Below, one piece after another: positions 113 to 12,091 of a DNA stretch of 12,091 nucleotides. Numbering within the stretch: the first letter of the stretch is position 1; each line of letters starts with the position of its first letter. The notes under the pieces were generated by a model. It was not told the DNA's origin. It searched no databases and was given only the letters and a program-made list of their open reading frames with translations. The stretch comes from Phlegmacium glaucopus (taxonomy: Eukaryota > Basidiomycota > Agaricomycetes > Agaricales > Cortinariaceae). The position numbers were made by a program, and so were the translations under genes. The stretch is from positions 1 through 12,091 of the forward strand of contig MU130625.1 in assembly GCA_015039465.1 (NCBI GenBank), read 5' to 3'.

Positions 113-2313
113 TTACTTGTCATTATCAGAGACCAGTACATATTCCTGAGCAGCTTCCTCTTCTTTGGGGGCCTCACTTCCACGAGATGATGCTGAGCGC
201 GAGCGTTTACGCTTCGGCTGGTTATCAGCTAGAATGTTGGAAATCTCTGCAAAGATTGCATCCCAGTGATCCTTTGACAGAGCTTTCACCGTGGGCATGT
301 ACTGAGTTGCACGACGAACGAGGACGTTGACTGTCCTACCCTTGTCTGATTTCCGTTCAGTGCGGTCACCGTAGTTGTCAGCCGAGAAGTGGTTGGCACT
401 GCCTCTAGCTTCAACATACTCTCCTGTTGTCCAAGCCTTCAGGGCGTGCTGAACCTGATATGAATGAGAATTTAGAGATAGTTAGAAATGAGTGATGACC
501 TACTGCTTGAAGAGCAAGAATGAATGCTCCGTATGGCTTCTCATCCTCGTTGAGGCGTTCTGGGTCAGGTACATCCTCCCATTCTGCAAAGTGAGCCAGT
601 GCCAACGTGTATAAAACCAGTGGATTTTGGAGTCGTCCCTATGTGTCACTTAGCGTGCATGGTGATATAAGATAGCTTGTGCATACCTTTTTGGTAGCCT
701 TTCCAGTCTCGTCATTAATGTTCCACTCTCTCCAGAGGAAAGAATAAGTTGGCGGATTTCCATCGGGTGTAAGGGAAAATTGAACCCAGTCAGCGATGAC
801 CTGATGATTGTTGAAGAATTCGGCCTGATCGATCTTGATGTACCTCTTCAGTCCTTCAGCAGCCTTGGTACCAAACCCGTTGCGCCAATTATTCAAACGA
901 TAACTAATCTGTGTGTTTAGATGTTGCATTAGCATGATCCAAGACATTTGGTGAATGTATGACTCACAAGCGGACCCCATGGGTCGATTAGGGCATCCTG
1001 AACAGTGTGCTGTGCAGGTCCATAAATCTTGTCGACGAGCCCCTGGACTTGTTCCTTTGAAAGGCCCTCCCAGGGAGAAAGAGATCCTGCGAGACTCTTT
1101 GCGAGAGGGACTAGCTGGTTGGTAAATACATCCGATGTCCCCTTGGGAAGGTGTTCGAGCTTCCACTTTTTTCCACTTCCACCACGGGCTTCGCGTTGCG
1201 TGCGAGGGGTGGACGAGACCACTTCTATCTTTAGGGATGATGACTGAATTTTTCTCTGAGCTTGTTGTTGTTTACATGGACCAGAGAACGTACGCACATA
1301 ATGGCTTGGACCTCGTTTTGACCCTTTGTCATTCACAACAACTGACCGCTCTACCTCATCATCTTCATCATCGCCAACCATGCCGCCAAACTGTACCAGT
1401 GAGTCATCATCTTCTGTGTTGGATTTATTGGCCGGTGCAATTGATTTGGCTTTGATAGCGGAGTCCCAGCCTGAACGAAGGCCTGAAGGTGGCTGGTTCG
1501 ACTTTTTGAATTTCTTGGCTACAGGCTGAGGGCTTCAGATTTATGAAAAAAAATTAGCACGGATCATAGACTCATACATTCCATGGAACTGACCCTGGGC
1601 TCCGCTCACGATGTTTCGAGTGTTCAACAGCAGATTTAGATCCAGTGGTCGGAACAGTGGTTCAAATGGCTGCAATCTCACGGCGTCCAGGTTTGGCCTT
1701 TTTACCTTTCTTGGACACAACTTCCTCCTTTTCACTCTCACTCTCATCCTCATCCTCACTCTCAACCTCATCTTTGCTCTCGACCTCATCTTCGTCACTG
1801 CCCTCTTGGTCTTCTGGTCGGTACTGATCCTTATCGCTATCATCAGACTCCATGCCATCAGGTAGGATCATTTCACTTCTGGTCGCTCAAACTGGCCCTA
1901 AAAATCAATAGGTGAGTTATTTTTAGCAAAAAGTGTCACATAAACATATGCAGAGCTGAATCTTTAGTATGAACAGATCCGATATCATCCTCCACATCTT
2001 TTCCTGCAGTAGGGGGAGGTGGACGAAAACTGGCAACTGGCGGCTTGCGAACATTCAATTGGGCTGTACGTTGAAGGTCCTCCTGGCACTGTTCATCTTC
2101 AATATCAGCAGCAATCTTCATGGCTTGCTCCTGGTTACGTTCTTTCTCTTGCTTATCCGATGCCTGCTGATCCCGGATGGCCTGCATTTCTGCAGGTGTT
2201 CTGCGTGGTTTAGGCTTGTCAACAGCACCTGGGCGAGCATCTTTATTCTTTGTGTGAGTAGAAGGACAACTAGGTGTGAAAGGCGGAGGGAGAGGATTTT
2301 TACTAGGGGCCAT
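113..2313 (-). pseudogene. Plavaka/KDZ-associated accessory protein gene, six exons, one in-frame stop
   Basis: Function is unknown; I recognise the layout as the fast-evolving partner protein commonly found beside basidiomycete KDZ/Plavaka transposases. Exons, read on the minus strand, are 2313-1940, 1878-1578, 1525-968, 908-687, 638-504 and 454-113. Phases agree throughout and the introns are 48-61 nt. The start is the ATG at 2313 (MAPSKNPLPPPF). The N-terminal part is Pro/Lys rich with a charged helical stretch (RTPAEMQAIRDQQ). A Glu/Asp/Ser-rich region (about 1850-1730) precedes a basic patch (KKGKKAKPGRR). The conserved C-terminal half has YRLNNWRNGFGTKAAEGL, FLWREWN, LALAHFAEWEDVPDPERL and KPYGAFILALQAVQHALK, and ends in a basic KRKRSRSASSR and an acidic tail. 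An in-frame TGA at 1664-1662 (about codon 197 of 644) follows the basic patch; CGA to TGA is the simplest explanation. The exon 1/2 junction (donor GTGACA at 1939) is the weakest call. The rest reads open, so the break may be recent. Confidence 0.72.
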
Positions 2314-2439
2314 CGTGGTTGACTGTTATCGATAAAGGTGTGTTTGCTCAATGGTTTGGTTTGGATCCATCCTCATTTGCTTCCATCAACAAACAGGTTG
2401 ATTACAAACTTCCCAGTTGTGAGTTTGCCTATATCTACC
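2314..2439. promoter_or_regulatory. Bidirectional promoter spacer between the two divergent transposon genes
   Basis: These 126 bases separate the minus-strand ATG at 2313 from the plus-strand ATG at 2440, so both promoters must lie here or overlap the coding regions. A perfect 10-bp palindrome, TTATCGATAA, lies at 2326-2335 and contains GATA on both strands. I see no clear TATA box. That this spacer is a shared promoter is inferred from gene orientation only. Confidence 0.45.
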
Positions 2440-5400
2440 ATGCCCCGTTCCTTTAAATTTCACTACATTCCTTGCCCAGTCAAATCATGTACTCGTCAAT
2501 TTACAAATCAAGGGGGCCTTAAAAACCATATCCGAATGCATCGCACGCCACAGGCAAATCAAGATCTGCCAGCACATCAGCCACCCATGAATGATGATAA
2601 TATTCTGGTCGATATCGAAGAGGACGCTCAGGAGCCGCATCCAGAACATCAAAATCAGCCTCCAAATCCTGAAAAAAATGCAAAAGAGCAGATTACTTAC
2701 CATCCGTTGATTAATGGTACACCGTCCCATTTTTATTCATAAAAATTTAGCTGACAGTTATTTAGGCCTGCCATGCGATGCACAAGGCAATTTTTTACCT
2801 GAAGGCGCACCACCTCCACCTTGGGAGGAGCGTGCTGATGACGACTTCGCCACTTTCAAGGACTCTGCGGCATTTGAGCTCGCTGACCTTCTGTTCCGAC
2901 GAGACCAGATGTCCGGTACCCACATCAACGATCTTCTTCAGATCTGGGCAACAACTCTTTCTCAGGATCAAGATCCCCCTTTTGTGAGCAAGAACGAGAT
3001 GTACAACGCGATTGATAACCTTGATCTTGGAGGTGCACCATGGAATTGTTTCACCGTGAAGTACAATGGTGAGATCAAGGAAGGCGATGTGACCCCATGG
3101 AAGCACAAACCCTTTGAGGTCTGGTATCGTGATCCTCAGGTTATCATGCACAACCAGTTGGGAAACCGAGAGTATGCAGATGAAATAGATGTTGCTTCGA
3201 AGGATGTGCGCGATAAGGATGGCAAGCGACGGTATTCAGATTTTATGTCTGGAAACTGGTCATGGCGACAATCAGTACGTGAAATTAGGATAAATATTCG
3301 CCTGTCTAGATACTAAACACGGTTTGAATAGAACGAGATAGCAAATGACCCCAGAAATCATGGATCCACTTTTTGCCCCACCATCCTCGGAAGTGACAAG
3401 ACCACAGTCTCAGTCGGAACAGGCCATAACGAATATCACCCCTTGTATATATCCAGTGGGCAGGTTCACAACAATGTTCGGCGTGGTCACCGAAATGCAG
3501 TGACGCTCCTAGCCTTTCTGGCAATTCCAAAAAGTAAGTAACTTACTTTGGCCTCAATACACGTAACGCCCGAGCCTACTATCAAAAAAATGATTTAACT
3601 TCTCATTATCTAGCTGATAAGGAGCACGAAGACAGCGCCGAGTTTTGAAAATTTCGCCGTAATCTCTTCCATGGCTCAATCAATCAAATTCTCCAGCCTC
3701 TGTGGGAATATATGGAGACGCCTGATATTGTCCGTTACGGCGATGGATATTATCGACATACAATTTATGGAATTGGTCCTTACATTGCGGATTACCCCGA
3801 GCAAGTTTTGTTGGCATGCGTCATGCAGGGTTGGTGCCCAAGGTGAGCAATGACCTCATTCTCATATCAATATGTCTCTTATATGTTATTCTATAGATGT
3901 GATGCTAAATGGGACAATCTGGATGACAACATTGCAGGACGGCGCTCCCACAAACTAACATGTTCTCTTGTTGCGGCTCTGGATAAAAACTCATTGTGGG
4001 ATGACTACGGAATTGTTAGCGACATCATGGTATGTTATAGCCAGTTATTGAACTCCTGCCTGCCCTCACTGTGTCTTTCTTAGCCGTTTACCCATGGCTT
4101 TCCTCGTGCAGACATTCACGAGTTGCTATCACCGGACCTTCTCCACCAAATCATTAAAGGCACATTCAAAGATCACCTGGTGACTTGGGTTACAGCTTAT
4201 ATCAATCTCGAGCACCCTCCGGCTGAGGCCAAACGGATTCTTGCTGACATTGACCGGCGGTAAGTCCTCTCACAGCTGTTTTTTTTTTAACAACCATGAC
4301 TCACCCAACACTTTTAGCATTGCCGTGGCACCCTCATTCCCTGGCCTTCGTCGCTTCCCTGAAGGCCATGGATTCAAACAGTGGATGGGAGATGACTCAA
4401 AAGCGCTTATGAAGGTATGTAATACTTTGCCAGCTGTTTCAACTGTCTTCCTGACCCGTCATCCCAGGTTTACCTTCCTGCTATTGCAGGCCATGTTCCT
4501 GCACAAATGGTGCGTGCGATAAGCTCCTTTATGGAGTTTTGCTATCTTGTCCGCCGTAATGTCATCACTGAGGACGACATTCTTTCTATCAATAATGCTG
4601 TCGCCAAATTTCACATCGAACGCAGCATTTTTGATGAGGTTCGCCTTGATGGGTATTCACTACCCCGTCAACACTCACTTGTTCATTACACATTCCTTAT
4701 TCAAGAATTTGGAGCACCAAACGGTCTTTGTTCATCAATAACCGAGTTGAAACACATCAAGGCTGTTAAAGAACCCTGGCGAAGGTCAAGTCACTACGAA
4801 GCTCTAGGCCAGATGCTTGTCACAAACCAACGTTTGGACAAGCTAGCTGCTGCAAGAGTTGACTTTCAAGCCCGTGGTATGCTTGATCGGCAATTTGGAC
4901 CACCAGACTTGCCACCAGATCCGCCAGCCAATAATCTTCAAGATGAGGAGGATGATGATGGAGGTGCGGTCAATGGCGATATTGATAGTGAGGTGATTCT
5001 CGCACAAATCCCCAGTGAGTCTCCAGGACAATTTTTCATCTCTCTGTGATCTCTGATTTGGATCGCTGTGTTATTGTACAGTTCGAAATCTTCCTCTCAC
5101 GGTTGAAGGTCTCGGTGACCATCTCAATATCCCCCACCTTCCAAACCTCATTCGGCGCTTCCTCCATGAACAACTGGTACAAGTTGAGGCTGACATCGAG
5201 CTCGATGATGTTCCGCTGTCAGATTGTCCTGTCCTTACCAACACAACAAAAATACGTGTTTTTCCTTCTGCGGTTGCCATTTATTATGCCCCAAGTGACT
5301 TGTCTGGCACAAGGGGGATGTTTCGTGAACATATTCGAGCTGTCAACTCCTGGAGGCGTGGTCCTGCGAGACATGACTGTGTTTTTGTTCAACATGATCC

Positions 5401-5710
5401 TGACAAACCAGGTTTCCGTGGGCTGTACATTGCGCGGGTACGCCATTTTTTTTCCATTTGTCACAACAAGACCCACTTTCCATGTGCGTTGGTCTCCTGG
5501 TATTCAACTATTGGTACCACGCCATGCGCAGACACTGGAATGTGGATGGTCGAGCCTGATTTTGATAATACGGGTAATTTAGCTATGTCGATCATCCATC
5601 TCGACAGCATGGTGCGCAGTGCACATCTCATGGGTATTGCAGGTGCTACCCGAATTCCTCACCACCTAACATTTGACCGTAGCCTGGATGCTTTCCAGGC
5701 ATTTTATTAA
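2440..5710 (+). pseudogene. Plavaka-like (KDZ superfamily) transposase with C2H2 finger, decayed
   Basis: DNA transposase that would excise and reinsert its own element through a DDE-type (RNase H fold) nuclease. Exons: 2440-2716, 2766-3274, 3332-3533, 3614-3842, 3897-4029, 4084-4259, 4318-4414, 4468-5014, 5082-5710; all phases agree, introns are 49-80 nt. A C2H2 finger (C-x4-C-x12-H-x3-H, about residues 10-35) follows the start. Plavaka-type blocks follow: FLPEGAPPPP, FMSGNWSWRQ, TILGSDKTTVSVGTGHNEY (likely first catalytic Asp), YGIGPYIADYPEQVLLA, QGWCPRCDAKWDNLDD, SPDLLHQIIKGTFKDHLVTW, FPGLRRFPEGHGFKQW, SLPRQHSL, APNGLCSSITELKHIKAVKE, NQRLDKLAAARVDF, DTGMWMVEPDFD. Two breaks: TGA at 3646-3648 (codon 341), where the family has Arg (CGA to TGA fits), and a 1-nt loss near 5706 that stops translation at 5708-5710; the usual DHHAHEYAF tail survives out of frame to 5751. 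Otherwise near full length at 933 codons. No terminal inverted repeats were found. Confidence 0.85.
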
Positions 5711-6066: not shown

Positions 6067-7296
6067 ATGTCTACTCCATCAAAACCCCAACTCACTGCTA
6101 AGCAGATTCAGAAACTGCAAGCAAAGTTTACTCAATTCTGTATCCTCGTGATCGGGCGGGCCAACGCAGGCAAGACAACAATCCTACGAAGACTGTGCAA
6201 TGCTACAGGAGAACCTATGATCTTCAGTCCAGATGGTAAAAAGGTGAAGTATATGGTGAAATTTCATACCAGATATTGACATCCATGCCCATGATCCCAG
6301 ATCAAATCATCAGCCCTTGATCCATCCGTGAAGGTAAGTGGTTCATGTATTAATGTTTGGGCTATATTTGATTAATATCGTTCACACTGTAGCGTGGAGA
6401 GCATGACATTGAGAATCAAATGATATTTGAGAGCAATCCTGGTTTCATCTTTCATGATTCCCATGGTTTTGAAGCTGGCAGTGTTCGGGAGTTGGAGCTG
6501 GTTCAGCAGTTCATTGAGCAGCGTTCGAAGGCAAGACACGTGTCGGAACAACTTCATGCAATCTGGTGTGTTAACAATCGCCTTTAGAGAAGGAATTTCT
6601 TCACTGAGAGAAAAAATATGTTTTTGGTAGGTACTGCATCCCGACAAGTGATGACCGGCCAATCACTGCAGCAGAAAAAAAGTTTTTTAATGAATGTGGG
6701 ACAGGGCTTGGTATGTGTTGTCTTATCAATATCTTATCATGAAAGATGACTCTGTGAAGTCCCAGTGATTGTCTTGTGGACCAAGACTGACTCTCTTGAT
6801 GTTGCTAAAATCAAGCAACTCATAAAGGAAGGTAACAGTAGGGTTGAGGCAATACAACAAGCTCCCCAAAAAGCTTGGACTGATTTTGAACAGAGTATTC
6901 ATCAACAGTTTGAAGAGTTTAAATATCCACCCAAGGCATATGTTGTATTTCGAAGTAAGCATTACACTTGTTCAACAATTATTTCACTAATTATGTGGTG
7001 CAGAGATGCATGAGCCTGGAGCTGACTGTAAAGACTTGATTGAAAAAACAACAGCTGCACTCTCTAGTGAAGAATTACTACAGCTCTTTCTTTCAACACA
7101 GCAAAACAATATTGAGTTGTGTGTTGTATATGGAGTTAGAAGGTGGGGAACCATAATTTTTTAAATCTACCCCATTAACATGATTCCTAGAATTGTAAAT
7201 GAGACAGGATCTAGTCTGTTGAAATATTTCAGAACAAATAAAAGAGATGGAGCAGATTGTATGGCAATTGTGCTGAGTCATTTTCCACAAATTGTA
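6067..7296 (+). CDS. P-loop GTPase (basidiomycete G-domain protein), seven conventional exons
   Basis: Predicted GTP-binding protein of the P-loop GTPase class expanded in basidiomycetes; cellular role unknown. Exons: 6067-6243, 6301-6333, 6393-6565, 6631-6710, 6760-6954, 7004-7142, 7191-7296, total 903 nt (301 codons) with consistent phases and no internal stop. G1/Walker A is GRANAGKTT (about residues 31-39), G3 is the DSHG of FHDSHGFEAGS, and G4 is the TKTD of VLWTKTDSLD. Family-like blocks WYCIPTSDDRPITAAEKKFF, PPKAYVVF and LFLSTQQNNIELC follow, ending in LSHFPQIV. The exon 5 acceptor is AAG at 6759, with CAG at 6765 as an in-frame alternative. The donor at 7143 (GTGGGG) is weak. The last exon ends in phase 0 at a GTGTGT donor (7297), just before the intron-like array. 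Without splicing there, it would run on 15 codons to a TGA at 7339-7341. The 3' end is therefore the open question: the natural continuation is the run of 3-nt exons. Confidence 0.82.
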
Positions 7297-7402
7297 GTGT
7301 GTATTTGGTCAGACCAAAATAAGTCATTGACAACTAATTGAGTTATATAGAGTGCTATCTTGAGCATCTAGCTCAAAACTGGACTAACATATATTTTGAC
7401 AG
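7297..7402 (+). other. Intron linking the GTPase exon to the first 3-nt exon
   Basis: A GTGTGT donor at 7297 follows the phase-0 codon GTA. A CTAAC branch-like site (7384-7388) lies 14 nt before the CAG that ends at 7402. The intron would be 106 nt. Choosing the alternative donor GTATTT at 7301 would put the following triplets in a phase that hits a stop within about ten codons, so 7297 is preferred. The sequence has no similarity to the 56-bp repeat body, so the splice architecture begins before the tandem repeat does. Confidence 0.5.
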
Positions 7403-8310
7403 TGTGTATGTAGGAAAAGAGTCATCATTATATTATCTGGCTGATTACCTTACTTGTTCTCTGATAGGTTGTAAGTGTAAGACCATCTTGATCTACCCTT
7501 ACTCTAGCTTACTCTTTGGACAGATAGTAAGCAGAAGACCATCTTAATCTGCCTTGACTCTAGCTAACTCTTTTGACAGAGAGTAAGTGCAAGACCATCT
7601 TGATCTGCCTTTATTATTAGCTTACTCTTTTGACAGGGTGTAAGTGAAAGACCATCTTGATCTGCCAATACTCTAGCTTACTCTTTTGACAGTTGGCAAG
7701 TGCAAGACCATTTTGATCTGCCTTGATTCTAGCTTACTATTTTGACAGTGGGTAAGTGCAAGACCATCTTGATCTGCCTTTGCCTTGACTCTAACCTACT
7801 CTTTTAACAGAAGGTAAGTGCAAGGCCATCTTGCCTTGATTCTAGCTTACTCTTTTGATAGGATGTAAGTGCAAGGCCATCCTAACCTGCCTTTACTCTA
7901 GCTTACTCTTTTGACAGAGTGTAAGTGCAAGATCATTTTGATCTGCCTTCACTCCAGCTTACTCTTTTGACAGGGTCTAAGTGCAAGACCATCTTGACCT
8001 GCCTTTACTCTAGCTTACTCTTTTGACAGGGTGTAGGTGAAAGATCATTTTGATCTGCCTTGACTCCAGTTTACTCTTCTGACAGAGAGTAAGTGAAAGA
8101 CCATTTTGATCTGCCCCAACCTTAGGTTACTCCTTGACAGTTTGTAAGTGCAAAACCATCTTGATCTGCCTTGACTCTAGCTTATATTTTTCACAGAAGG
8201 TAAGTACAACACTGTCTTAATATGCCTTAATTCTAGCTTATTCTTTTGGCAGATGGTAAGTGAAAGACCATCTTGATCTGCCTTGACTATAGCTTACTCT
8301 TTGACAGGAG
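7403..8310 (+). other. Candidate 3-nt exons 1-17 (start, triplet, phase-0 residue)
   Basis: 7403 TGT Cys; 7468 GTT Val; 7524 ATA Ile; 7580 AGA Arg; 7637 GGT Gly; 7693 TTG Leu (donor GCAAGT); 7749 TGG Trp; 7811 AAG Lys; 7862 GAT Asp; 7918 AGT Ser; 7974 GGT Gly (donor CTAAGT, broken); 8030 GGT Gly (donor GTAGGT); 8086 AGA Arg; 8141 TTT Phe; 8197 AAG Lys; 8253 ATG Met; 8308 GAG Glu. Each is directly preceded by AG. The first has the donor GTATGT and a non-repeat intron on its left. Confidence 0.55.
7974..8029 (+). other. Array unit with a broken 5' splice site (CTAAGT)
   Basis: Unit 11 reads CAG-GGT-CTAAGT, so the donor G at 7977 has become C; it is the only unit lacking GT or GC at the expected position. 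Splicing could skip this 3-nt exon by joining 7918-7920 to 8030-8032 with no frame change, or could use the GT inside the triplet (7975). The neighbouring unit 12 also has triplet GGT. Confidence 0.6.
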
Positions 8311-8363
8311 GTAAGTGTACATGAATTTTAATCTGCCTTCACTCTAGCTTACCCTTTTGATAG

Positions 8364-9271
8364 GATGTAAGTGCAAGACCATCTTGACCTGCTTTGATTC
8401 TAGCTTACTCCTTTGACAGTGGGTATGTGCAAGACCATTTTGATCTGCCTCTGCCTTGACTCCAGCTTACTCTTTTGACAGGAGGTAAGTGCAAGGTCAT
8501 CTTGATCTGCCTTGATTCTAGCTTACTCTTTTAATAGGATGTGAGTGCAAGGCCATCTTTACCTGCCTTTACTCTAGCTTACTCCTCTGACAGTTGGTAA
8601 GTGCAAGACCACCTTGATCTGCATTGATCCCAGCTTACTCTTTTGACAGAAGGTAAGTCAAGACCATCTTGATCTGCCTTTACTCTAGTTTACCCCTTTG
8701 ACAGAGAGTAAGTGCAAGACCATCTTGATTTGCCCTGACTCTAGTTTATTCTTTTGACAGTTTGTAAGTGCAACTTGTGCAAGATCATCATGATTTTCCT
8801 TGACTTTAGCTTATCCTTTTGACAGCTGGTAAGAGTGCAAGACCATCTTGATCTGCCTTGACTCCAGTTACTCTTTTGACAGGAGGTAAGTGGAAGACGG
8901 TCTTGATCCACCTTGACTCTAGCTTACTCTTTTGACAGGAGGTGAGTGCAAGGCCATCTTGATCTGCCTAGACTTTAGCTTGCCCCTTTGATAGGAGGTA
9001 AGTGCAAGACCACCCCTTGATCTGCCTTGACTCCAGCTTACCCCTTGACAGGGGGTAAGTGCAAGACCACCTTCCTTGACTCCAGCTTACTCTTTTGACA
9101 GTTGGTAAGTGCAAGACCATCTTTATCTGCCTTAACTCCAGCTTACTTTTTTGACAGTTGGTAAGTCAAGGCCATCTTGATCCACCTTGACTCTAGCTTA
9201 CCCTGTTGACAGAGAGTAAGTGCAAGACCATTTTGATCTGCCTTGATTCTAACTTACTCTTTTGACAGGAG
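8364..9271 (+). other. Candidate 3-nt exons 18-34 (start, triplet, phase-0 residue)
   Basis: 8364 GAT Asp; 8420 TGG Trp (donor GTATGT); 8482 GAG Glu; 8538 GAT Asp (donor GTGAGT); 8594 TTG Leu; 8650 AAG Lys; 8705 AGA Arg; 8761 TTT Phe; 8826 CTG Leu (donor GTAAGA); 8883 GAG Glu; 8939 GAG Glu (donor GTGAGT); 8995 GAG Glu; 9052 GGG Gly; 9102 TTG Leu; 9158 TTG Leu; 9213 AGA Arg; 9269 GAG Glu. All are preceded by CAG or TAG. Introns here are 47-62 nt, most of them 53. Confidence 0.55.
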
Positions 9272-9323
9272 GTAAGTGCAAGGCCATTTGATCTGCCTTG
9301 ACTCTAGCTTACTCTTTTGACAG

Positions 9324-10274
9324 ATGGTAAATGCAAAAGCATCTTGATCTACCTTGACTCTAGCTTACTCTTTTGACAGATTGTAAGTGCAAAAGTATCT
9401 TGATCTGCCTTGATTCTAGCTTACTCTTTTTTAGTTTGTAAGTGCAAGACCAATTTTGATCTGCTATGACTCTAGTTTATTCTTTTGACAGGAGGCAAGT
9501 GCAAGACCATCTTGATCTGCCTTGACTCCATTTTACTCTTTTGACAGTGGGTAAGTGCAAGACCATCTTGATTTGCCTTGACTCTAGCTTACTTTTTTGA
9601 CAGATTGTAAGCACAAGACCATCTTGATCTGCCTTGACTGAAGCTTGCTCTTTTGACAGGAGGTAGATGCAAGACCATCTTGATCTCCCTTGACTCTGGC
9701 TTACTCTTTTGATAGTTTGTAAGTGCAAGACCATCTTAATCTGCCATGACTCTAGCTTATTATTTTGGCAGAGAGTAAGTGCAAGACTTTTTTAATCAAC
9801 CTCTAGCTTACTCTTTTGACAGAATGTAAGTGCAAGGCCATTATGATCTGTCTTGACTCTAGTTTACTCTTTTGACAGAGAGTAAGTTCAAGACCACCTT
9901 GATCTGTCTTGATTCTAGTTAATTCCTTTGACAGAGAGTAAGTGCAAGCACAGAGAAGTCTTTACTACTCTGTCATCTTCCTTTATTAAAATGTCTTCTT
10001 TCTTTGTATGTCATTGATGACAGGAAGTATGTGCAGGAAAGCTATGATCAATCACTATTCTTTTACTGATGTCATATGTATTTGGACAGTATGTAAGTGA
10101 ACTGATCATATCATTGTTGCTGGCATAACATTCTTTGGGCAGCATGTATGTGATGCATTGTATTTTACCTGCCATTTACTCCATGACATCTCTTTGTCAA
10201 CAGAATGTATGTGCAAACAGTTTGTGATCTGCCTTTTTCTCTGTTTACTTATGGAATACCATTATTTACAGAGG
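9324..10274 (+). other. Candidate 3-nt exons 35-51 (start, triplet, phase-0 residue)
   Basis: 9324 ATG Met (donor GTAAAT); 9380 ATT Ile; 9435 TTT Phe; 9492 GAG Glu (donor GCAAGT); 9548 TGG Trp; 9604 ATT Ile (donor GTAAGC); 9660 GAG Glu (donor GTAGAT); 9716 TTT Phe; 9772 AGA Arg; 9823 AAT Asn; 9879 AGA Arg; 9935 AGA Arg; 10024 GAA Glu (GTATGT); 10090 TAT Tyr; 10143 CAT His (GTATGT); 10204 AAT Asn (GTATGT); 10272 AGG Arg. The last five sit between introns of 86, 63, 50, 58 and 65 nt that no longer resemble the tandem repeat, yet keep AG, three bases and GTRNGT. Confidence 0.55.
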
Positions 10275-10350: not shown

Positions 10351-10497
10351 CTATAGAACAAAGTAACTCAGTCTCGGAATAAAAGACTATATATTTAGGT
10401 AATCTATACCTATAGAACAAAGTAACTGTAACTATGATCAGTCCAAGCTGTAATAGTAAAGTAGATAGTACGAACCTCAGTCTCGGAATAAAAGACT
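10351..10497. repeat. Internal direct repeats in the LTR
   Basis: An 18-bp sequence (CTATAGAACAAAGTAACT) occurs at 10351-10368 and again, identical, at 10410-10427. A 22-bp sequence at 10367-10388 recurs, identical, at 10476-10497. The left copies are joined together while the right copies are separated by about 50 bp. This suggests duplication of an LTR end followed by an internal deletion. Confidence 0.8.
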
Positions 10498-10502
10498 GAG
10501 GT
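10474..10502. repeat. Perfect 10-bp inverted repeat in the LTR
   Basis: ACCTCAGTCT (10474-10483) and AGACTGAGGT (10493-10502) are exact reverse complements around a 9-nt loop, CGGAATAAA. The loop contains AATAAA on the plus strand. It could be a transcription-factor dyad or an RNA hairpin; I cannot say which. Confidence 0.75.
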
Positions 10503-10656
10503 ATGGGATACAAATGATTGTAACATATATATGAAAGGGATTCCTTCATTCTCCGGGAACGACGGTAGCAATGGTTGGGAGGGAAATTTGTATGAGTAAT
10601 AAAACATAGATAAAAATACCTAAAATCTTTGTCATGCGCGGTTTGGGTATTCAACA

Positions 10657-10668
10657 CTCCCCCTCAAA
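10657..10668 (-). other. Polypurine tract of the copia element
   Basis: On the minus strand, GAGGGGGAG lies immediately before the LTR start TGTTGA and overlaps the pol stop codon (TGA at 10666-10664). This is the usual plus-strand priming site of Ty1/copia elements. Confidence 0.75.
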
Positions 10669-12091
10669 CCGTGCTAAGTCCTAGCGCAGAAGCGAAGTGT
10701 TTGGCTTTGACTGATGGTAACGCTTTGGTAAGCATATCGGCTGTCATGTCGTTCGTAGGGCAATAAACGAGTTTGATGGTTCCGGCCTCGATAATATAAC
10801 GGATAAAATGATAGCGAATGTCGATGTGTTTTGTGCGAGCATGATAGTGTCCGTCCTGTGCGAGTGCGATGGCAGATTTACTGTCGCTAAACAAAATTGT
10901 TGGAGTGTCGACGGATCCGAATAACTCGCTGATAAGACGTCGTAGCCAAACAGCTTCTTTTGCGGCGTGGGTAGCTGCGACGTACTCGGCTTCCGTTGTT
11001 GACAGAGTGACTAACTCTTGCTTCTTCGACGACCACGATACTGCCCCTCCATCTACCATGAAGGCGTAACCTGATATCGCCCTTCTGTGCTCTTGCGACG
11101 CCCCATCCGCATCAACATACCCCACTAGTCCTCTCGTCTCTCCACCATACATCAACTCCAGCTTCTTGGTTCCCAATAAATAACGAAATATTCGTTTTAC
11201 GGCTTCCCAATGGGTCCAGCCTGGGTTGTCTGCAAACTGGGCTACTGTCGACGTCGCGAATGCTATATCGGGTCTCGTACCCATAGCTGCATACATTAAT
11301 GAACCAACAGCTTCACGATAAGGCACGTTCTTCATTTTAATAATGTCTTCGATTTTACTGGGGCTTTGTGACTTTGACAGTGGTGCTGAGGGATCTATGG
11401 GGATCGATGATGGTTTGAGATCATCGAAATTGAATCGCGTGATTATGGACTTGATATATGCATGTTGGGATAAGGAAATGGTTTTATTGGCGAGATCGCG
11501 AGTGATCTTGATGCCGAGGAGCCAGTGGGCAGGTCCAAGGTCGGTAATCTTATATTTCTTGTTCATTTCAACCTTGAAGTTACTGATTAATTTTGTAGAG
11601 CTCCCCGTTACCATGCAGTCGTCGACATGGACTGCTAGTATGATGATGTCTTCTCCAATTTCTTTGTAGAAAACTCCGTGATCTGCTTCTGTCCTCTTGA
11701 ATCCCAAGTCGTCCAAGGCTCGGCACAATGCGTCGTACCAATTCTTTGCTCCCTGCTTCAACCCATACAAGGTTTTCAACAGCTTCCATACCCATCGTTG
11801 ACGGTCTTCCGTTTCGTGACCGATCGGTTGTTCGAGGTAAATGGTTTCATTTTCACCAAGTTCGCTGTTCAAGTATGCTGAATCGAAGTCAAAAGTATCG
11901 ACAGGCCATCCCTTGCGAGCAGCGATTGCGAGGAGGAGACGGAAGGAGGCTAGCTTTGCCACAGGTGCGTATGTCTCATAATAATCGATGCCGTAAATCT
12001 GAGTGAAGCCCTTAGCGACTAATCGAGCTTTGTACTTTTCAATTTCGCCTGCAGCATTCTTCTTGATGCGTAATACCCATCGACAGTCAAC
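10664..12091 (-). CDS. Ty1/copia Pol, C-terminal part: reverse transcriptase and RNase H
   Basis: Copies retroelement RNA into DNA (RT) and removes the RNA strand (RNase H) inside virus-like particles. The frame is open from the window edge at 12091 to TGA at 10666-10664, 475 residues, so the N-terminal part (gag, protease, integrase, start of RT) lies outside. RT motifs in order: KARLVAKGFTQ, ETYAPVAK, FDFDSAYLNSEL, LYGLKQGAKNWYD and the catalytic HVDD (about residues 155-158, with His where YVDD is common). RNase H motifs: VGYVDADGA (about 325), TLSTTEAEYVAA (about 365) and LFSDSKSAIALAQD (about 403), then ARTKHIDIRYHFIR and MLTKALP. No stop or frameshift is visible, so the copy is probably young and possibly active. 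Confidence 0.93.
   Translation of the reverse strand, partial: VDCRWVLRIKKNAAGEIEKYKARLVAKGFTQIYGIDYYETYAPVAKLASFRLLLAIAARKGWPVDTFDFDSAYLNSELGENETIYLEQPIGHETEDRQRWVWKLLKTLYGLKQGAKNWYDALCRALDDLGFKRTEADHGVFYKEIGEDIIILAVHVDDCMVTGSSTKLISNFKVEMNKKYKITDLGPAHWLLGIKITRDLANKTISLSQHAYIKSIITRFNFDDLKPSSIPIDPSAPLSKSQSPSKIEDIIKMKNVPYREAVGSLMYAAMGTRPDIAFATSTVAQFADNPGWTHWEAVKRIFRYLLGTKKLELMYGGETRGLVGYVDADGASQEHRRAISGYAFMVDGGAVSWSSKKQELVTLSTTEAEYVAATHAAKEAVWLRRLISELFGSVDTPTILFSDSKSAIALAQDGHYHARTKHIDIRYHFIRYIIEAGTIKLVYCPTNDMTADMLTKALPSVKAKHFASALGLSTV

What the first reader, a model, noticed from the sequence alone, without database searches (positions are those of the whole stretch)
7403..10274. A gene tail built of about 51 single-codon (3-nt) exons
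Fifty-one times in a row the plus strand shows a fungal-type 3' splice site, exactly three variable bases, and a 5' splice site. Nothing in an ordinary minisatellite explains why the only hypervariable part of a 56-bp unit should be the three bases between CAG and GTAAGT while both splice signals stay fixed. The array directly follows an intact GTPase gene whose last exon ends in phase 0. If spliced, each exon would contribute one codon, and any subset could be included or skipped without frameshift. That would allow combinatorial tail variants, like an extreme form of micro-exon genes known in some animals. I know of no described gene with this many consecutive 3-nt exons.
Basis: partly seen in the sequence, partly recalled or inferred. 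Interest (0 to 1): 0.96.

Follow-up and report, generated by a model that had tools for sequence, protein, structure and literature searches.

The report
Genes with one codon per exon
A mushroom genome holds dozens of GTPase genes with a stretch of up to about 98 three-base units in a row, each framed by splice signals and almost free of stop codons, which are predicted to be spliced as one-codon exons into a highly variable protein linker.

Summary
Confirmed, and larger than reported. The genome has at least 40 matches to this gene's 3' end. In 28 parsed regions of this family, 1,133 triplets include 2 stops (about 95 expected after column shuffling). Other GTPase subfamilies have the same architecture with different introns: 76-nt units (1 stop of 214), 59-nt units (0 of 294), and one array of 46 triplets whose first seven introns are no more alike than shuffled sequence. 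That excludes a minisatellite artefact. The triplet slot is 3 nt long in 717 of 726, 164 of 164 and 248 of 248 cases, while 18-40% of introns vary in length. Exons in phase follow downstream, so the array encodes a linker, not a tail. An NCBI gene model contains 20 of these codons in order. Introns and codons have separate histories: three arrays share 99% identical introns but unrelated codons. No RNA from this species was available, so splicing, its completeness and alternative inclusion are inferred. Six paper searches aimed at such arrays listed nothing comparable.

The parts
6067..6243 (+). GTPase exon 1 (start codon, P-loop GRANAGKTT)
   Evidence: projected onto 5 paralogs with the same length
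6301..6333 (+). GTPase exon 2 (33 nt)
6393..6565 (+). GTPase exon 3 (173 nt)
6631..6710 (+). GTPase exon 4 (80 nt)
6760..6954 (+). GTPase exon 5 (195 nt). Searches had it start 6 nt too late; homologs read GTGLVPVIVLW, and an AG precedes 6760 and the same place in 5 of 5 paralogs
7004..7142 (+). GTPase exon 6 (139 nt)
7191..7296 (+). GTPase exon 7 (106 nt), ends in phase 0 (FPQIV)
   Evidence: 40 places in the genome match window 6980-7480
7297..7402 (+). Ordinary intron (GTGTGT to GACAG) between the last GTPase exon and the first single-codon exon
7403..7405 (+). First single-codon exon (TGT); the intron after it is not of the repeated type
7403..10274 (+). Array of 51 predicted single-codon exons separated by introns of mostly 53 nt
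7471..9948 (+). Homogenised part of the array: 56-nt unit = 3-nt exon + intron GTAAGTGCAAGACC to CTTACTCTTTTGACAG
7974..7976 (+). Unit GGT with a mutated donor (CTAAGT); probably skipped
10024..10274 (+). Last five single-codon exons (GAA, TAT, CAT, AAT, AGG) with introns unlike the repeat; this 3' end has 39 matches in the genome, some loci hit twice
10388..10656 (-). LTR of a Copia element inserted in the intron after the last single-codon exon; the other LTR, 99.6% identical, is at C225:15138-15406, and the 30-nt exon of this gene lies beyond it at C225:15462-15491, outside the window

Best explanation
The array is predicted to be coding: each triplet would be a complete exon of one codon, spliced in phase 0 between the G domain and a C-terminal region of a GTPase, so that the linker is read one codon per exon. 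Shown from sequence: triplets lie between acceptor and donor signals, avoid stops in one frame only, keep a length of three, and are followed by exons in the same phase. Inferred: introns are removed one at a time, probably in 5'-to-3' order, because acceptor and next donor are only 3 nt apart; each splicing step adds one codon to the upstream exon, like a recursive-splicing ratchet that leaves one codon behind. A retained intron would end translation or shift the frame (1,088 of 1,105 introns), giving a GTPase with no or a shorter linker. Shown: introns are homogenised among loci while codons are not. Inferred: recombination or conversion between near-identical introns adds, removes and reorders single codons in frame, and selection keeps useful linkers, so the array makes a fast-evolving linker. 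The predicted fold of a relative resembles immunity-related and dynamin-like GTPases, so a role in recognition or membrane-linked defence is possible but untested.
For: Stops: 2 of 1,133 triplets in 28 family-A regions, expected 94.8 or 99.1 by two shuffles (minimum of 1,000 each 70 and 71); the other two frames of the joined triplets give 70 and 180 of 1,105. Allowing long gaps: 2 of 1,152, expected 95.6; 30 further strict units near the arrays but off the path, no stop. Family B 1 of 214, expected 18.0; family C 0 of 294, expected 11.8. C60: 46 triplets, no stop, first seven introns 54.6% identical against 54.7% shuffled. Length: 3 nt in 717 of 726, 164 of 164, 248 of 248 slots with near-consensus flanks; slots inside introns vary in 26 of 547, 43 of 589 and, in C, 45 of 232. 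Third base C is 0.1%, 0.9% and 0% against 15.9% in six GTPase coding sequences. Splice signals are conserved with random triplets between them. Gene frame: GTPase ends in phase 0; 3' exons follow in phase. NCBI model P0005 contains 20 of these codons in order. cDNA-like relatives P0012, P0020, P0081, P0037 carry linkers of the same amino-acid bias (borders chosen by eye).
Against: No RNA from this species. The closest cDNA-like records (P0002, P0004) do not show the linker: P0002 ends with residues that fit the first intron, so unspliced or short transcripts probably exist in a relative. Three arrays carry an internal stop triplet (C15, C8; C223). Three A slots look truly frame-breaking (AT, TGTG, GAGA). 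The linker of P0181 is intermediate in composition. Splicing of 50 introns in series would be wasteful unless each step is very efficient. How codons turn over is not resolved: introns sharing rare variants do not share flanking codons, which intron-level insertion or replacement would also give.
Confidence: 0.88

Rival explanations
1. A non-coding minisatellite in a 3' intron or UTR whose unit happens to look like a splice acceptor, three bases and a donor.
For: TRF sees a 56-nt tandem repeat; homogenised repeats are common; P0001 and P0003, two gene models of this species, stop at the array.
Against: Stop avoidance in one frame only, fixed 3-nt length, four kinds of intron with the same architecture, one of them non-repetitive by TRF, downstream exons in phase.
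Confidence: 0.03
2. The array is a regulatory switch: transcripts mostly retain the first intron or one of the following ones, giving a GTPase without a full linker, and full linkers are rare or conditional.
For: P0002 (cDNA-like) and P0001 (gene model) end with residues that fit the first intron; P0037 ends in EVSFF, as if a GTGAGT intron were retained after about 23 linker residues; retention is terminal or shifts the frame in 1,088 of 1,105 introns.
Against: Codons would not be kept free of stops if full linkers were never made. P0020, P0081 and P0181 are open through the linker into the C-terminal part, P0012 far into it.
Confidence: 0.25
3. The arrays arose when an introner-like mobile intron inserted between neighbouring codons of an ordinary exon, rather than by duplication of codon-plus-intron units.
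For: Introns are 99% identical among three arrays whose codons are unrelated and whose GTPase parts are 92-93% identical; introns sharing rare variants do not share codons. Introners with 3-9 bp target duplications are described (PMC9860276, passage).
Against: Insertion at every codon boundary in phase 0 has no mechanism that I know of. Excess of identical neighbouring codons in A (lag 1: 121 against 85.9 expected) and array-specific synonymous codons point to local unit duplication.
Confidence: 0.2
4. Triplets are recursive-splicing ratchet points that are removed from the final mRNA.
For: Acceptor and donor nearly touch, as at ratchet points with juxtaposed acceptor and donor (PMC8605326, search listing).
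Against: No reason for stop avoidance, fixed multiples of three, or codon choice of this kind.
Confidence: 0.03

Closest known systems
Micro-exon genes (MEGs) of Schistosoma
   Same: Many consecutive tiny, mostly in-frame exons, a multi-gene family that automatic annotation handles badly.
   Different: MEG exons are 6-81 bp in the text (3-81 in the abstract), mostly 15 bp, 10-20 per gene, with introns of 0.1-5 kb, and encode secreted proteins (PMC10526429, passages). Here nearly every exon of the array is exactly one codon, up to about 98 in a row, with introns of modal 53, 73 or 56 nt, inside a GTPase gene.
Introners / introner-like elements
   Same: Near-identical introns multiplied within a genome.
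   Different: As described they insert in many genes across the genome (PMC9860276, abstract start and one passage). Here the copies that I examined lie in tandem in one region of one gene family, one codon apart.
Single ultra-small exons (3-bp exon of Drosophila homothorax; 1-nt exon of Fusarium CYP621A)
   Same: Show that exons of 1-3 nt can be included, in a fungus too (PMC7392893 listing; PMC12940212 abstract and passages).
   Different: Single exons, not arrays.
Aphid bicycle genes
   Same: Rapidly evolving family recognised by gene structure rather than sequence (PMC9168663, search listing only).
   Different: Exons are not single codons (recalled); putative effectors, not GTPases.
Immunity-related GTPases and dynamin-like proteins
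   Different: About 10-13% identity and TM-scores of 0.2-0.4; no linker array in IRG genes (recalled).

Membership tests
Micro-exon genes (MEG sense) | Consecutive exons mostly multiples of 3, mostly 15 bp, with introns of 0.1-5 kb | tested here: not met
   Exon slots are 3 nt in 1,129 of 1,138 cases; introns modal 53, 73 and 56 nt; definition from PMC10526429 passages
Micro-exon genes (MEG sense) | Transcribed and spliced micro-exons | not testable with these tools
   No RNA reads of this species; P0005 is a gene model of unknown basis
Introners | Introns with near-identical sequence at many loci | tested here: met
   Families A, B and C
Introners | Insertion in many unrelated genes, target-site duplications or terminal inverted repeats | tested here: inconclusive
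Minisatellite without coding function | Repeat drift independent of reading frame and splice signals | tested here: not met
G-domain GTPases (MMR_HSR1 / TRAFAC class) | P-loop GRANAGKTT and Pfam G-domain match | tested here: met
   P-loop; window protein matches PF01926 at E 4.9e-4, 20.6 bits, just below the cut-off of 21.9; relative P0081 passes it at 23.7 bits
Immunity-related GTPases | G domain with helical bundle and sequence homology to IRGs | tested here: inconclusive

The most novel reading that the evidence does not exclude
A codon-by-codon recombination system: in mushroom-forming fungi a family of immune-like GTPases writes its variable linker one codon per exon, and near-identical introns between the codons act as universal recombination joints, so that any exchange adds, deletes or swaps whole codons in frame. 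Arrays of up to about 98 codons, several independently homogenised intron families and read-through traces in Suillus would make this a widespread way of generating hypervariable protein segments, possibly for self/non-self recognition.
Probability: 0.4. Interest if true: 0.98.

Novelty: categorically new. Interest (0 to 1): 0.95.

Why it matters
If spliced as predicted, a whole protein segment is encoded one codon per exon, tens of times in a row, in dozens of genes. It would test how the spliceosome handles an acceptor and a donor three bases apart, in series, and whether introns must be removed in order. It would show introns serving as recombination joints that let a protein segment change codon by codon without frameshift, the exon-shuffling idea at its limit. 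Ordinary aligners and gene finders miss such exons, so similar arrays may lie unseen in other fungal genomes. Codon and intron histories can be compared directly, which makes long-standing questions of intron gain and intron homogenisation testable.

Tried and rejected
Minisatellite artefact: rejected by frame-specific stop avoidance, fixed length, and the C60 array with unrelated introns. Tail at the end of the gene: rejected, 3' exons follow. Codon series inherited with their introns: not supported. A 3-bp target-site duplication as source of the triplets: identical neighbours are only mildly enriched, so left open as origin.

Errors of mine, mended: my first reading of the C-terminal exons, used in the query, was wrong in part; P0005 gave the likely exon borders. 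GTPase exon 5 was modelled 6 nt short, and the queries lack those two residues; one search shows the AG at the right place in 6 of 6 genes. The phase does not change. A first measure of intron similarity in C60 failed in one half and was redone. The path search keeps one best path per region and lost 17 units of one C145 array and 2 of C8; one search recovers them without a new stop. Rows dropped before counts: one spurious C60 hit at 6888, and two spurious window hits at 7528 and 10221.

Results against or beside the reading: of ten further GTPase loci fetched outside family A (L049-L058), seven have an array, L052 and L055 have none and L051 only a remnant. A protein search with the C-terminal region found only P0005. 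The C-terminal half of the model is barely tested by the fold rows.

Paper searches: searches were aimed at such arrays and listed 9 of 9, 0 of 0, 20 of 31, 15 of 30, 25 of 52 and 10 of 121 papers; none listed describes consecutive single-codon exons by title or abstract start. Searches covered neighbouring subjects. I read listings only, except passages of PMC9860276, PMC10526429 and PMC12940212.
Full report
1. What is in the window. Between 7403 and 10274 there are 51 triplets preceded by [CT]AG and followed by a donor-like sequence: 50 have GT or GC donors and one, GGT at 7974-7976, has its donor mutated to CTAAGT. The repeated part is a 56-nt unit: a triplet and a 53-nt intron with family consensus GTAAGTGCAAGACCATCTTGATCTGCCTTGACTCTAGCTTACTCTTTTGACAG. 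The CTTAC in it sits where a fungal branch site is expected (recalled, not tested). No triplet in the window is a stop.

2. The gene. The upstream GTPase has seven exons between 6067 and 7296, 903 nt, ending in phase 0; searches had exon 5 start 6 nt too late, which one search mends for the window and five paralogs. The exon borders of the paralogs were projected from the window; all lengths agree. Downstream of the arrays lie a 30-nt exon (ASVSKIMLPI type) and further 3' exons. The gene model P0005 suggests the order DSISKIMSPI, LSNLSAKFNLKEATYCAI, VAAIIGHLSFFLHQESPS and on. In the window copy a Copia element sits in the intron after the last triplet; its LTRs are 99.6% identical over 269 bp, and the 30-nt exon lies at C225:15462-15491 with the following exons behind it. 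So the array encodes a linker.

3. Genome and family. Contig lengths of NCBI proteins P0001 (459,859) and P0003 (880,866), both Phlegmacium glaucopus, equal those of contigs C8 and C62 (taxonomy). For P0005 they differ (868,108 against 864,199 for C237), so the assemblies may not be the same version. A stretch of the array has 276 matches, the unit pattern 745 + 604 against 0 + 26 for the control. The GTPase 3' end with the first units has 40 matches (40 of 46 candidates were scored), the array 3' end 39, some loci twice.

4. Coding signal. I fetched and parsed 28 regions of this family (A), out of at least 40 loci. A path search scored acceptor and donor, not the triplet. It gave 1,133 triplets in series of 9 to 98, some series with longer gaps where a unit is broken. 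Two triplets are TAG, none TAA or TGA. Shuffling each triplet column within arrays gives 94.8 stops on average, minimum 70 in 1,000; reading the joined triplets one or two bases off gives 70 and 180 stops of 1,105. With long gaps allowed the count is 1,152 with the same two stops, and 30 strict units near the arrays but off the path hold none. The TAGs lie in C15 and C8. The series of C237:609900 reads VLDDMNDLIRAMNERRELMRSLIRALKRDRLRARDELLRTDEELLAAGLDSDELILLALRYHT.

5. Other intron families. Loci of other GTPase subfamilies were found with P0007. Ten such loci were fetched. Seven have arrays: family B with 76-nt units, family C with 59-nt units (a 69-nt variant in L056), and C60. L052 and L055 have none, L051 a remnant. 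With further B and C loci, family B gives 214 triplets in 7 regions with 1 stop (18.0 expected, minimum 9) and family C 294 in 10 regions with none (11.8 expected, minimum 4). Regions with two arrays may be undercounted, since one best path was kept.

6. The C60 array. TRF finds no repeat there. Yet 46 units matching [CT]AG|NNN|G[TC]RNG run over 3.6 kb without a stop. Its first seven introns are 54.6% identical to one another, against 54.7% for shuffled copies; window introns score 79.6% by the same measure. Introns of a later part are weakly alike (65.8% against 58.9%). Under a strict rule (GT donors, introns of 40-90 nt) the longest unbroken chain is 8 in C60, against at most 2 in 500 Markov controls and 0-2 in eight other stretches; with introns up to 150 nt it is 24. 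This separates the architecture from repeat structure.

7. Length constraint. Where both flanks are near consensus, the slot between acceptor and donor is 3 nt in 717 of 726 cases in A, 164 of 164 in B and 248 of 248 in C. Of the nine others three are 6 nt, three look truly frame-breaking (AT, TGTG, GAGA) and three look like false block matches. Introns are off their modal length in 36%, 18% and 40%. Slots inside introns vary in 26 of 547, 43 of 589 and, in C, 45 of 232.

8. Codon choice. The third base is C in 0.1% (A), 0.9% (B) and 0% (C) of triplets, against 15.9% of 1,794 codons in six GTPase coding sequences; G is 1.4-1.7% in B and C against 24.6%. In C most amino acids use one codon: GAA 58 to GAG 1, CTT 44 to CTG 1, GGA 24 to GGT 1 and GGG 1; arginine has CGA 18, AGA 6, CGT 1. 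Single arrays keep a dialect, for example AGA only or AGG only for arginine in several A arrays. That fits an exon that must serve both splice sites, plus some local copying.

9. Separate histories of introns and codons. In A, unit pairs with 0 mismatches in 45 flanking bases still differ at 65.6% of triplet sites, against about 68% in general; within one array it is 41%. Between arrays, intron pairs sharing two rare variants (257 pairs) share the upstream codon in 3.5% and the downstream codon in 4.3%, against 5.6% and 5.5% of random pairs; with three (18 pairs) 5.6% and 0; with four or more (21 pairs) 14% and 0. Their next introns share slightly more variants (0.45 against 0.28). In B, introns of C223, C144 and C201 are 98.7-99.1% identical between arrays, random codons 3.6-4.4%, and the codon series cannot be aligned. 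Their GTPase parts are 91.8-93.1% identical. So introns were homogenised among loci after the genes split, and the codon series turned over. Local duplication also occurs: identical neighbours 121 against 85.9 expected in A (z 4.1), 46 against 35.4 in C (z 2.1), not in B (13 against 16.9). Two A arrays on C145 still share 16 aligned units with 69% identical codons.

10. Evidence from annotated and cDNA-like proteins. P0005 (BYT27DRAFT_7202008) contains two GTPase exons found exactly at C237:125284 and 125412, followed by 20 array codons from 126189 to 127483. It leaves out four units (donors GTAGTA, GTAACT, GCAAGT, GTAGGT) but keeps a GAA with donor GTAGGT; one E before the series is unexplained. 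Its other parts come from elsewhere, so the model is chimeric and may be a gene-finder product. Short JGI contigs with open frames across the intron sites of these genes look like cDNA; that is inferred. Linkers of P0012, P0020, P0081 and P0037, with borders chosen by eye, are poor in P, Q, T, A, C, V, S (4-14%; A arrays 15%, window GTPase 39%) and rich in D, E, R, L, Y, F, W (65-88%; 59%, 32%); P0181 is intermediate (30% and 55%). P0037 ends EVSFF, as a retained GTGAGT intron would read. P0002, close to this species, ends with residues that fit the first intron. Suillus models P0174, P0130 and P0150 read as if tandem 66-nt introns were separated by one or two codons; this is inferred from protein letters alone.

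11. Mechanism. Shown: signals, frame, length, gene context, intron homogenisation. Inferred: stepwise removal of introns, since two spliceosomes are unlikely to sit 3 nt apart; a one-nucleotide exon is spliced in Fusarium (PMC12940212, abstract and passages), so size alone is no bar. Retention of an intron shifts the frame or adds a stop in 1,088 of 1,105 A introns. Inferred: recombination at introns edits the linker by whole codons.

12. Protein. The G domain is weakly matched by Pfam. A model of P0081 (mean pLDDT 85, 30 sequences) has one of its two lowest-confidence stretches at about residues 291-320, in the linker between the G domain and a helical region; the other longer one is near 451-460. 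Best fold matches are immunity-related GTPases and dynamin-like proteins, at about 10-13% identity. Function is therefore only suggested.

13. Novelty. Six paper searches aimed at such arrays in an open-access library listed no gene with consecutive single-codon exons; the four others covered neighbouring subjects. Most lists were capped and were read as titles and abstract starts. The nearest kinds are schistosome micro-exon genes, introners and isolated ultra-small exons; their defining features are only partly met.

Noticed in passing
window 2338-5710 (+): Plavaka-type transposase gene (PF18759, E 1.7e-27 on the piece 2714-3313; C2H2 finger match below the cut-off) directly upstream of the GTPase gene.
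   Followed up: partly
window 10388-12091 (-) and C225:12092-15406: Copia LTR element (RVT_2, E 2.6e-50) with LTRs 99.6% identical, a recent insertion in the intron after the array.
   Followed up: partly
window 639-2313 (-): Open frames on the minus strand, perhaps one multi-exon gene; the one piece tested (639-1166) has no Pfam match.
   Followed up: no
Families B and C, loci L049-L069: Near one-to-one codon dictionary: few NNC, NNG, NGT and NTA triplets, perhaps to avoid cryptic splice sites next to GT and AG.
   Followed up: partly
Proteins P0130, P0150, P0174 (Suillus): Gene models read through tandem 22-residue blocks (VSVSILL to HCSQ) separated by one or two residues, as expected of similar arrays with 66-nt introns in Boletales.
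   Followed up: partly
C145:624393-628468 (L018, L022): Array whose 3' flank is unlike the conserved 3' end; perhaps truncated or rearranged.
   Followed up: no
C15:390891-394360 (L007), C8:330400-335900 (L035), C223 (L049): Arrays with one in-frame stop triplet (TAG, TAG, TGA); possible pseudogenes or skipped units.
   Followed up: no
C62:820000-827500 (L031): Paralog with a last donor changed to GCCAGT and a stop in one reading of the 3' exon.
   Followed up: no
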